Below are positions 19,768-48,310 of a stretch of DNA of 64,000 nt, in pieces. The position numbers and the translations under genes are program-made. Below the pieces are notes generated by a model that did no database searches, had not been told where the DNA came from, and saw only the letters and a list, made by a program, of their open reading frames with translations. Origin of the DNA: an uncultured Myxococcales bacterium. Lineage in GTDB: Bacteria > Myxococcota_A > UBA9042 > DTJE01. The stretch spans positions 1 through 64,000 of the forward strand of contig CAINDP010000115.1 in the NCBI GenBank assembly GCA_903847405.1, written 5' to 3'. Numbering within the stretch: position 1 is the first letter of the stretch; each line of letters begins with the position of its first letter.

Positions 19768-19820
19768 GGAAAATGGGGACAGACACCATTTCGCGAAAAT
19801 GGTGTCTGTCCCCATTTTCC
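19768..19820 (+). repeat. REP-like palindrome, perfect 24-bp arms
   Basis: Arms 19768-19791 and 19797-19820 are perfect reverse complements around a 5-bp centre (CGCGA); the core is ATGGGGACAGACACC. It sits between the promoter side of the M29-Usp gene and the lon stop codon. Related copies are at 32400-32441, 40289-40340 and 45631-45655. Confidence 0.92.
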
Positions 19821-32399: not shown

Positions 32400-32441
32400 C
32401 GGAAAATGGGGACAGAAAATGGTGTCTGTCCCCATTTTCCG
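32400..32441 (+). repeat. REP-like palindrome, 16-bp arms
   Basis: CGGAAAATGGGGACAG (32400-32415) and CTGTCCCCATTTTCCG (32426-32441) are perfect reverse complements around a 10-bp loop. It lies in the divergent gap between the lyase-hydrolase and NicO-type genes and shares its core with the repeat at 19768-19820. Confidence 0.9.
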
Positions 32442-40288: not shown

Positions 40289-40340
40289 GGAAATGGGGAC
40301 AGGCACCGATTTCCGGAAATGGGGACAGACACCAATTTCC
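40289..40340 (+). repeat. Two tandem REP-like units
   Basis: Two 26-bp direct copies of GGAAATGGGGACAGRCACCRATTTCC (40289-40314 and 40315-40340), each with inverted GGAAAT/ATTTCC ends. Unlike the other copies they are arranged head-to-tail. Confidence 0.92.
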
Positions 40341-45593: not shown

Positions 45594-45629
45594 GTGGACC
45601 TCGACGTGGACGTGCACGTGGACGTGGAC
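45594..45629 (+). repeat. GTGGAC hexamer array (six units)
   Basis: Six hexamers: GTGGAC with variants CTCGAC (unit 2) and GTGCAC (unit 4), immediately followed by a REP-like unit. It resembles the array at 15089-15142. Confidence 0.85.
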
Positions 45630-45630
45630 G

Positions 45631-45655
45631 AGAAATGGTGTCTGTCCCCATTTCT
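45631..45655 (+). repeat. Single REP-like unit
   Basis: One 25-bp unit, AGAAATGG-TGTCTGTCC-CCATTTCT, whose ends are 8-bp inverted repeats; it is the reverse-complement orientation of the ATGGGGACAGACACC core. Confidence 0.85.
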
Positions 45656-45728: not shown

Positions 45729-47705
45729 GTGACGCGTGAAACGTTCGGCGGACTGGCGATGGCGGCCGCGATGGCGATCTGGACGGTCGCGGCCCCCGCC
45801 CGGGGCGCGGACCTGCCCGGGCCCGTGGACGCCCGGGCGTGGCGGGACGCGCGGGATCTGCTGATGGCCCGCACCCGCATGGAGCCCCCGACCCCCGCCA
45901 CCCCGATCCGCGAGCTGCGGAGGTACCTGCGCACGATCGTGCCCCAGGCCGTGGTGACGGGGACGGTGCGGGTGCAGCACCTGGACGGCGACGTCACGAT
46001 CGACCCCACGGGAAAGCGCATCGACGCGGTGCTGCGGGAAACCGTGAACTTCGTGGACGCGGGAACCAGCGCCTTCCGGCTGATGTCCTTCCTGCCCATC
46101 GCGGGGATCGAAACCACCGACGGCATGCCCGTGACCTGGACCGCCGAAACCGTGCAGGGCTATCCCATGGCCCTGGTCACCCTGACGGACATCCCGGCGA
46201 AGGGCGCGTCGCGGGACTTCGTGGTTCGCCTGAGCGGCGTGCCCGACTGCCAGATGAGCGGCCCGATTTCGGTGAACCTGTGCGCCTGGGGCCGGGTCAT
46301 CTACGTGGCCGGCGACCTGTTCCTGCCGGGGGCGCTGGGCGACGACTTCGCCACGGCCGACCTGCGCATCACGATGCCCGCCGGGTACACGATCGCGGCG
46401 ACCGGCGTCGTGACGTCGGTGACGCCGGCCGCGGACGGCATGGAAGTGCACCACGTCGAGCAACCCTTCCCCAGCGACGCCCGGTCGTTCGGCATTTCGC
46501 TGTACCAGGAGGCGCGCATCCCCTGGGGCACGGGCTACATCGGGACGTACACGGACCCGGCCGACGCCCGGGCCCAGGACGGCGTGCCCGAGATCCTCAC
46601 GGACATGAAGAACGTGCTGGAGTACTACTCGGCGCGGATCGGCGCCTTCCAGTTCCCGAAGATGGAGGCCTGCCAGGTGACCAACGACGCCGGCGCGGCC
46701 TTCGGCTGGCCGGCCCTGCTGTGGATCCCCGACGGCATGCTGCGGCACGCGGGCACCGGCCGCACCGCCCTGTTCGCCCACGAACTGGGCCACCAGTGGT
46801 TCCCGGACATGATCAAGAGCAACGACAACTGGGCCGCCTGGCTGTCCGAGGGGTTCGCCGAGTACCTGTCCACGGAGTACATGGGCACGGTCGTGGGGGC
46901 GGACTACCCGACCGCCGTCTACAATTCGTACGGCGAGATGTACATGTACTTCATCCCCGACGCCCAGGACTACGGCCTGTCGTCGATGGACTCCCAGTAC
47001 GTCAGCGACAGTTCCGTGTACCAGGTCGTCACGTACTACAAGGGCGCCATCGTCTGCCACATCCTGGAAAAGTACGTGGGCACCGACGTGTGGAACCAGG
47101 CGCTGCGGGCGATGTACGACGCGCTGGCCGGCAAGGAGGCGTACTACACGACGTACGACTTCAAGGCGTACCTGGAAGCCGCGGCGGGCCGGGACCTGAC
47201 CGACGTGTTCATGAACTGGGTGTTCAAGAAGGGCTTCCCGACCTACACGGTGGACGTGACGCGCACGATGTCGGACGCGGGCGCCCCCCGGGCGACCGTC
47301 CGGGTGCGGCAGGTGTCCAGCACGAAGTACAACGACTTCAAGATGCCGGTCCAACTGGCGCTGGTGACCGAGGCCGGGGAAACCGTGGTTGAAGTGGCGG
47401 TCGACGTGGCCGACCAGACGTTCACCTTCGACCTGGACAGCCGCCTGGTGCGCGTCCGGTTCGACCCGGCGCGGAACTTCCTGAAGCACGTGAACCCGGG
47501 GCTGCCGGGAGACATGGACCTGTCGGGCGAAATCGACGGGATCGACCTGATGTACACGGCCTGGGCCCAGGGGTCGTCGGCCTACGGGTACTCCGACAAC
47601 TTCCACGCGGCCGTGGATTTCGATCGGAACGCCCAGGTGGACGAGGTGGACCTGGCGCTGGTGACGGACGGGTTCGGCCGGTCGTCGGAAGGAGGTGCGC
47701 CATGA
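45729..47705 (+). CDS. M1-family metallopeptidase with C-terminal dockerin
   Basis: A 658-residue secreted protein. A signal peptide (GGLAMAAAMAIWTVAAPARGAD) precedes an M1-like beta domain and the gluzincin site HELGHQWF (near 351) with the second Glu in WLSEGFAEYL. The exopeptidase motif GxMEN is not conserved: the corresponding segment reads NDAGAAFGWPALLW. At the C terminus (about 595-655) are two calcium-loop repeats, DMDLSGEIDGIDL and DFDRNAQVDEVDL, fitting the dockerin type I pattern. Start is the GTG at 45729 (GGGAGAGCCC before it). The stop overlaps the ATG of the cohesin-like lipoprotein, so the two are translationally coupled. Confidence 0.86.
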   Translation: MTRETFGGLAMAAAMAIWTVAAPARGADLPGPVDARAWRDARDLLMARTRMEPPTPATPIRELRRYLRTIVPQAVVTGTVRVQHLDGDVTIDPTGKRIDAVLRETVNFVDAGTSAFRLMSFLPIAGIETTDGMPVTWTAETVQGYPMALVTLTDIPAKGASRDFVVRLSGVPDCQMSGPISVNLCAWGRVIYVAGDLFLPGALGDDFATADLRITMPAGYTIAATGVVTSVTPAADGMEVHHVEQPFPSDARSFGISLYQEARIPWGTGYIGTYTDPADARAQDGVPEILTDMKNVLEYYSARIGAFQFPKMEACQVTNDAGAAFGWPALLWIPDGMLRHAGTGRTALFAHELGHQWFPDMIKSNDNWAAWLSEGFAEYLSTEYMGTVVGADYPTAVYNSYGEMYMYFIPDAQDYGLSSMDSQYVSDSSVYQVVTYYKGAIVCHILEKYVGTDVWNQALRAMYDALAGKEAYYTTYDFKAYLEAAAGRDLTDVFMNWVFKKGFPTYTVDVTRTMSDAGAPRATVRVRQVSSTKYNDFKMPVQLALVTEAGETVVEVAVDVADQTFTFDLDSRLVRVRFDPARNFLKHVNPGLPGDMDLSGEIDGIDLMYTAWAQGSSAYGYSDNFHAAVDFDRNAQVDEVDLALVTDGFGRSSEGGAP

Positions 47706-48310
47706 GGCGGAACCTGGTGATTCCGTTCCTGTGCGCGGCCGCCCTGCTGGTGGCGGGATGCGACACGAAGCCCCTGTCCATCCCGGACCCGGGGGCGCCG
47801 GACGTGCCTGCCGACGTCCCGGGCGAGGTGGCCCCCGACGTTCCCGTCGTGGACGACGCGCTGCACGACGCGGTGGTGCCCGTCGCGTACATCCCCGCGG
47901 CCTCCTTCCGGTTCGTATCGGCGGGACGGGACGGCGAGGCCTTCGTGATCGACGTCGTCGCGCGGGATTTCAAGGCCACGTTCGGAATGGCCCTGCGGGT
48001 CGAGTGGGATCCGGCGGCCCTTGCCCTGGTATCGGCCCGGCCCGCGGCGATCTTCGGCGACGAGGCGGCGGGCGAGGCGGTGTACCGTGCGGCCGAAATC
48101 CGCCCCGGCTCCCTGGCCCTGGGCCTGACGCACCTGTACTACCTGGCGGCAACCGCGCTGCCGGGCGACGTTGTCGTCGCCACGCTGAAGGTGAAGTCCC
48201 TGAACGGCACCCCCGCCGACCTGCGCTTCTTCGCCCCCCGCTGCCTGCTGATGGACGGCGATCGCGCCCCGATCGACGCCACGTACCTGACCGCGACCCT
48301 GAATCCCTGA
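47702..48310 (+). CDS. Cohesin-domain lipoprotein
   Basis: A 202-residue lipoprotein (lipobox LLVAGC) with an Asp/Val/Pro linker and one ~135-residue beta domain. The run VIDVVARDFKATFGMALRVEWDPAAL, with LVSARPAAIFG and later ALGLTHLY and VVVATLKVKSL, follows the cohesin fold pattern (short V-x-V, then W/F-D-P-x-x-L, then I-A-x-L-x-F-x-V). Overlap with the dockerin-bearing peptidase (ATGA) makes cohesin-dockerin binding the likely purpose: the lipoprotein would hold the peptidase at the outer membrane surface. The domain call is by eye and divergent from clostridial cohesins. Confidence 0.72.
   Translation: MRRNLVIPFLCAAALLVAGCDTKPLSIPDPGAPDVPADVPGEVAPDVPVVDDALHDAVVPVAYIPAASFRFVSAGRDGEAFVIDVVARDFKATFGMALRVEWDPAALALVSARPAAIFGDEAAGEAVYRAAEIRPGSLALGLTHLYYLAATALPGDVVVATLKVKSLNGTPADLRFFAPRCLLMDGDRAPIDATYLTATLNP

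What the first reader, a model, noticed from the sequence alone, without database searches (positions are those of the whole stretch)
45729..48310. Two-gene cohesin-dockerin module tethering an M1 peptidase to the cell surface
The peptidase ends in two calcium-loop repeats (DMDLSGEIDGIDL, DFDRNAQVDEVDL) that fit the dockerin type I pattern. The next gene, overlapping by 4 bp, is a lipoprotein whose only domain follows the cohesin strand pattern. Cohesin-dockerin pairs are known from clostridial cellulosomes and scattered outside them; a lipid-anchored single-cohesin receptor dedicated to one protease, in a myxobacterium-like genome, would be a minimal non-cellulosomal display system.
Basis: partly seen in the sequence, partly recalled or inferred. 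Interest (0 to 1): 0.88.

Follow-up and report, generated by a model that had tools for sequence, protein, structure and literature searches.

The report
Cohesin lipoprotein paired with dockerin peptidase
Two overlapping genes in a myxobacterial genome encode a secreted peptidase carrying a dockerin plug and a lipid-anchored protein carrying the matching cohesin socket; the two genes stay side by side across the phylum, which suggests a minimal enzyme-tethering device outside the cellulose-degrading cellulosome.

Summary
45729-47705 encodes a secreted M1 peptidase with an intact zinc site and two C-terminal calcium loops; 47702-48310, overlapping it by ATGA, encodes a lipoprotein with one cohesin-like domain. 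Alone, both domains score below Pfam's cut-offs (Cohesin 18.2 bits, Dockerin_1 10.7). Profiles from relatives settle their identity: all 19 PDB matches of the cohesin profile are cohesins (best E 8e-12), and the dockerin profile's best matches are dockerins. The pair is conserved: in the genome's class (52 genomes) 32 have both, 18 neither, and the two exceptions lie at contig ends. In other classes of the phylum, shown by rpoB to be Myxococcota, cohesins found with the cohesin profile alone lie beside such M1 genes. I examined 48 pairs, in both gene orders, nearly all overlapping by 4 bases. None of 80 generic M1 loci has either domain. Best explanation: a one-cohesin, one-dockerin, calcium-dependent membrane tether for one peptidase. 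Binding was not shown and 'cell surface' is undecided. New variant of a known kind.

The parts
45729..47705 (+). secreted M1-family zinc peptidase with C-terminal dockerin (658 aa, GTG start)
   Evidence: Peptidase_M1 E 1.9e-17; HELGH-x18-E and YYKG present; the zinc ligands and Tyr are invariant in the 21-sequence alignment
45729..45809 (+). predicted signal peptide of the peptidase (VTRETFGGLAMAAAMAIWTVAAPARGA)
   Evidence: read from the sequence; same type of N-terminus in the nearest orthologue; no signal-peptide program was run
46686..46724 (+). place of the M1 GAMEN motif; here DAGAAFGWPALLW, lacking the Glu that anchors a substrate's free N-terminus
   Evidence: profile alignment to puromycin-sensitive aminopeptidase puts Gagfgwlalvw on GAMENWGLVty
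46779..46850 (+). zinc site H351, E352, H355 ... E374
   Evidence: invariant across 21 aligned relatives
47508..47678 (+). dockerin: loop 1 D595-L607 (DMDLSGEIDGIDL) and loop 2 D630-L642 (DFDRNAQVDEVDL)
   Evidence: profile hit E 3e-21 at 47496-47693 (the profile includes this sequence); PDB dockerins are the best matches of the profile; column conservation in 48 pairs
47702..48310 (+). single-cohesin lipoprotein (202 aa); its start overlaps the peptidase stop (ATGA)
   Evidence: lipobox VAGC; such an overlap in nearly all relatives
47702..47761 (+). lipoprotein signal peptide and acylated Cys20 (MRRNLVIPFLCAAALLVAG-C)
   Evidence: sequence; lipobox found by pattern in 39 of 48 relatives
47894..48304 (+). 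cohesin domain
   Evidence: profile A1 E 1.4e-40 (A1 includes this sequence); Pfam Cohesin E 0.003 on the sequence alone; PDB matches of A1 are all cohesins

Best explanation
A two-gene operon makes a minimal, one-to-one cohesin-dockerin tether. The peptidase is exported and its C-terminal dockerin, folded around two Ca2+, plugs into the single cohesin of a lipoprotein that is held in a membrane by its acylated N-terminal cysteine and a flexible linker (about 25-70 residues in most members). The enzyme is thereby kept on a membrane face instead of diffusing away. Shown: both domain families, the lipobox, the conserved calcium residues, the zinc site, the conserved gene pairing and the 4-base overlap. 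Inferred: binding, its calcium dependence, a single binding mode (repeat 1 is the more conserved), and the membrane face. What the peptidase cuts is unknown; loss of the GAMEN glutamate suggests it is not an ordinary aminopeptidase.
For: Profile identity of both domains. Class-wide co-occurrence: 32 both and 18 neither of 52 genomes (p 8e-12). A1 alone found 12 further places in other classes of the phylum; 11 are beside a dockerin-bearing M1 and the 12th is beside an M1 cut by the contig end (L182). Of 18 dockerin places outside the class, 16 have a cohesin next door. Two gene orders (18 and 30 of 48) with the pairing kept and nearly always a 4-base overlap. 80 generic M1 loci from many phyla: none has either domain. 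Cohesin distances track dockerin distances after removing the peptidase's own divergence (partial r 0.375; 14 blocks of the peptidase of similar size give -0.03 to 0.325).
Against: No structure or complex could be modelled: single-sequence AlphaFold2 gave pLDDT 35 for both proteins, which says nothing either way. Dockerin-M1 paralogues without a cohesin gene beside them exist in G001 and G007, one copy in G336 stands alone, and G000's second copy sits at a contig end. Coevolution was tested only coarsely and phylogeny is not fully removed. The membrane face is undecided.
Confidence: 0.82

Rival explanations
1. The two proteins bind each other, but inside the envelope: the lipoprotein stays on the periplasmic side of the inner or outer membrane, so the peptidase is a periplasmic, membrane-held enzyme and not a surface-displayed one. 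(This is a rival only to the 'cell surface' part of the claim.)
For: The mature lipoprotein begins C-D-T-K; Asp at +2 retains lipoproteins in the inner membrane of E. coli (own knowledge; abstract of PMC5727369), and Asp+2 is shared by several family-f1 members. Nothing in the locus is a known surface exporter.
Against: In M. xanthus inner-membrane lipoproteins carry Lys+2 and no such role of Asp is reported (abstract of PMC3222651); members of other families have Gly, Ser, Thr or Ala at +2.
Confidence: 0.45
2. The calcium-loop tail is a dockerin that docks on another cohesin (for example the giant two-cohesin lipoprotein on contig C137), and the single-cohesin lipoprotein serves other dockerin proteins.
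For: G000 has two other Pfam cohesins on C137 and a second dockerin-M1; G015 carries 12 Pfam-detectable dockerins.
Against: Most genomes with the pair have no other Pfam-detectable dockerin or cohesin, while the pair itself is adjacent and overlapping; the giant cohesin proteins are not found wherever the pair is.
Confidence: 0.1
3. The EF-hand-like tail is only a calcium-binding stability module and the cohesin-like lipoprotein does something else; the operon reflects a shared pathway without direct contact.
For: No binding data; many non-cellulosomal dockerins and cohesins have no clear role from their presence alone (PMC9012536, citing Peer et al. 2009).
Against: Near-perfect pairing of two domain families whose well-known function is to bind each other, kept in two gene orders; dockerin divergence follows cohesin divergence more than any peptidase block does.
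Confidence: 0.08

Closest known systems
Cellulosomal cohesin-dockerin pairs (scaffoldin-enzyme complexes of clostridia)
   Same: Same two domain families by profile; calcium-loop dockerin at the C-terminus of an enzyme; cohesin on an envelope-bound partner
   Different: One cohesin per receptor and one enzyme type instead of multi-cohesin scaffoldins; a peptidase in place of glycoside hydrolases; lipid anchor; genes overlap in one operon
Non-cellulosomal cohesin and dockerin modules (Peer et al. 2009; archaeal and other cases, as cited in PMC9012536)
   Same: Cohesin and dockerin outside cellulose degradation and without large scaffoldins
   Different: Here the partner is named by genome context, conserved across a phylum, and tied to one enzyme family; the library searched gave no description of it
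Clostridium perfringens secreted glycoside hydrolases joined by cohesin-like and dockerin modules (PDB 2jnk/2ozn are among the dockerin profile's matches; the rest from own knowledge)
   Same: Pairing by one cohesin and one dockerin outside the cellulosome
   Different: There secreted glycosidases; here a membrane lipoprotein and a peptidase
M1 aminopeptidases (puromycin-sensitive aminopeptidase, aminopeptidase N)
   Same: HExxHx18E zinc site and catalytic Tyr; closest solved relatives of the catalytic part
   Different: Lacks the GAMEN motif and carries a C-terminal dockerin

Membership tests
Cohesin (PF00963) | Domain sequence matches the family | tested here: met
   P0002 alone is under Pfam's cut-off (18.2 vs 24.1 bits); 21 of 33 homologues match at E up to 1, some over the cut-off; the family profile hits only cohesins in the PDB
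Cohesin (PF00963) | Nine-stranded jelly-roll fold | tested here: inconclusive
   single-sequence AlphaFold2 model has pLDDT 35; relatives' sequences were not admissible for a deeper alignment
Dockerin type I (PF00404) | Two EF-hand-like calcium loops about 20-45 residues apart | tested here: met
   D595, D603, D606, D630 in 48 of 48 and D641 in 47 of 48 pairs; 31 of 37 tails match Dockerin_1 at E up to 1, P0001's own tail below the cut-off; PDB dockerins top the profile's hits
Dockerin type I (PF00404) | Binds a cohesin, calcium-dependently | not testable with these tools
   genome co-occurrence only
Cellulosome | Scaffoldin with several cohesins and many dockerin-bearing polysaccharide-degrading enzymes | tested here: not met
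   one cohesin per lipoprotein; one or two dockerin-M1 genes and few other Pfam-detectable dockerins per genome in nearly all members; so not filed as a cellulosome
Peptidase family M1 | HExxHx18E zinc site and catalytic Tyr | tested here: met
M1 aminopeptidase | GxMEN exopeptidase motif | tested here: not met
   GAAFGWPALLW or GGGYAPLSGIF and the like at that place in the relatives aligned
Bacterial lipoprotein | Signal peptide with lipobox and cysteine | tested here: met
   VAGC after a hydrophobic stretch; pattern found in 39 of 48 relatives

The most novel reading that the evidence does not exclude
A phylum-wide, monogamous cohesin-dockerin pair in Myxococcota that displays a non-canonical M1 peptidase on the cell surface, attached and released by calcium, for example for digestion of prey or matrix protein at the cell face.
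Probability: 0.35. Interest if true: 0.78.

Novelty: new variant of a known kind. Interest (0 to 1): 0.62.

Why it matters
Most non-cellulosomal cohesins and dockerins have no known partner. Here genome context names the partner in 48 cases, giving a naturally minimal one-to-one pair that can be assayed at once, a model for cohesin-dockerin recognition outside the cellulosome, and a ready set of candidate orthogonal pairs for protein display. It also points to a membrane-held peptidase that much of one myxobacterial class keeps.

Tried and rejected
Pfam on single sequences: sub-threshold, not decisive. The genome-contig scan with the peptidase alignment was flooded by generic M1 peptidases and returned no member of the family; it was kept as a negative control. 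AlphaFold2 without an alignment gave meaningless models for both proteins (pLDDT 35), so no fold search was run. No 16S rRNA gene was found in the assembly, so an rpoB tree was used. Considered and rejected: the two gene orders as evidence of repeated re-association; the tree needs only one change. Rejected: the orphan paralogue's partner being the giant C137 protein; orphan and giant protein do not co-occur across genomes.

Full report
What is there. The window encodes a secreted M1 peptidase at 45729-47705 and, overlapping it by ATGA, a lipoprotein at 47702-48310. The flanking genes are unrelated by annotation: an AAA ATPase upstream on the other strand, a DJ-1/PfpI-family gene downstream, then a hexapeptide-repeat protein and a sigma-54 regulator on the other strand. 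The two genes therefore look like a two-gene unit.

Is each domain what it looks like? On single sequences the case is weak: Cohesin 18.2 bits and Dockerin_1 10.7 bits, both under Pfam's cut-offs. I collected homologues from relatives and built profiles from 33 partner domains (A1) and 37 peptidase tails (A2). Against the PDB, A1 matches 19 distinct sequences up to E = 10 and every one is a cohesin (best 8.4e-12). A2's best matches are dockerins, with calmodulins far weaker. Individual homologues match Pfam Cohesin down to 1.2e-10 and Dockerin_1 down to 1e-8.

Does the pair go together? With A1 and A2 over all 52 genomes held of the class, 33 have the cohesin, 33 the dockerin, 32 both and 18 neither (Fisher p 8e-12; the test treats genomes as independent, which relatives are not). 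The exceptions, G027 and G049, lie at contig ends where the partner would be cut off. In a sample of 379 genomes of the phylum, A1 alone found 12 more cohesin places: 11 sit beside an M1 gene with a dockerin, and at the twelfth (L182) the M1 gene runs off the contig before its tail. Of 18 dockerin places outside the class, 16 have a cohesin next door, five of them seen only with an extended profile; the other two are a lone extra copy in G336 and a protein that is not an M1 peptidase (G304). As a control, 80 M1 peptidase loci from many phyla contain no match to either profile.

Gene order and coupling. In 48 pairs examined, 18 have the peptidase first and 30 the cohesin first; nearly all overlap by 4 bases or by 1. 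The peptidase tree needs only one change of order, so this is one swap with adjacency kept, not many.

Anatomy. Loop 1 of the dockerin is the more conserved (G594, D595, G600, V602, D603, G604, D606); loop 2 keeps D630, an Asp, Asn or Ser at 634, and D641. That asymmetry suggests one preferred binding face (inference). Cohesin distances follow dockerin distances beyond the peptidase's own divergence (partial r 0.375), more than for any of 14 similar-sized blocks of the peptidase (-0.03 to 0.325). This is modest evidence, because the blocks overlap and phylogeny is not fully removed. The zinc ligands and catalytic Tyr are invariant in the 21-sequence alignment, but the GAMEN motif is replaced in the relatives aligned, so an ordinary aminopeptidase is unlikely. 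Some distant members lack a clear HExxH or Tyr match by pattern (L076, L176 and others), which may be a limit of the pattern or real loss.

Taxonomy. An rpoB tree puts the window's genome and other members of its phylum in one fully supported group with Corallococcus and Pyxidicoccus, so the phylum is Myxococcota; finer placement was not possible.

Where does it sit? The lipobox predicts a membrane lipoprotein. Asp at +2 would mean the inner membrane in E. coli; in M. xanthus the reported signals are Lys+2 for the inner membrane and Ala+7 for the matrix (PMC3222651), neither of which P0002 has. Members from other families have Gly, Ser, Thr or Ala at +2.

What remains unexplained. G000, G001 and G007 have a second dockerin-M1 peptidase; in G001 and G007 no cohesin gene is seen beside it, and in G000 the contig ends there. 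It could dock on the same lipoprotein. G000 also has a 3450-aa putative lipoprotein with two Pfam cohesins. So the pair is not the only cohesin-dockerin matter in this genome, although most genomes with the pair have nothing else that Pfam detects.

Verdict. A dedicated, minimal cohesin-dockerin module is the best explanation by far; physical binding, calcium dependence and location need the bench. It is a new variant of a known kind: known domains and a known mode of recognition, in an arrangement (single lipid-anchored cohesin, overlapping gene for one peptidase, widespread in one phylum) that I did not find described in the papers searched. Subscription journals, including Peer et al. 2009, were not readable here, so prior mention cannot be excluded.

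Noticed in passing
L064:2465-12817 (G000 contig C137): A 3450-aa putative lipoprotein with many DATCDGxDDDCDG (MopE-like) repeats, two Pfam cohesins and, right after the second, a dockerin-like stretch (GDANDDNEFSIADILFIQQ...); giant ORFs of 3000-9500 aa with several Pfam cohesins also occur in G011, G012 and G026.
   Followed up: partly
L065 5120-7054 (G000 C165), L066 4741-6672 (G001 C42), L067 485-2392 (G007 C307): A second M1 peptidase subfamily with a dockerin at its end but no cohesin gene seen beside it; in G001 it lies next to genes that look like succinate dehydrogenase subunits.
   Followed up: partly
window 45633-45653, also 19771-19791, 19797-19817, 32417-32437, 40291-40311, 40317-40337: A 21-bp near-palindrome AAATGGTGTCTGTCCCCATTT occurs six times in the window with up to 3 mismatches (four exact; none expected by chance), one copy just upstream of this operon; it looks like a REP-type repeat.
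   Followed up: partly
window 45595-45632: A run of GTGGAC-like hexamers directly upstream of that repeat and of the operon.
   Followed up: no
G015 (whole genome): This genome of the same class has 12 Pfam-detectable dockerins, so a larger dockerin system may exist there.
   Followed up: no
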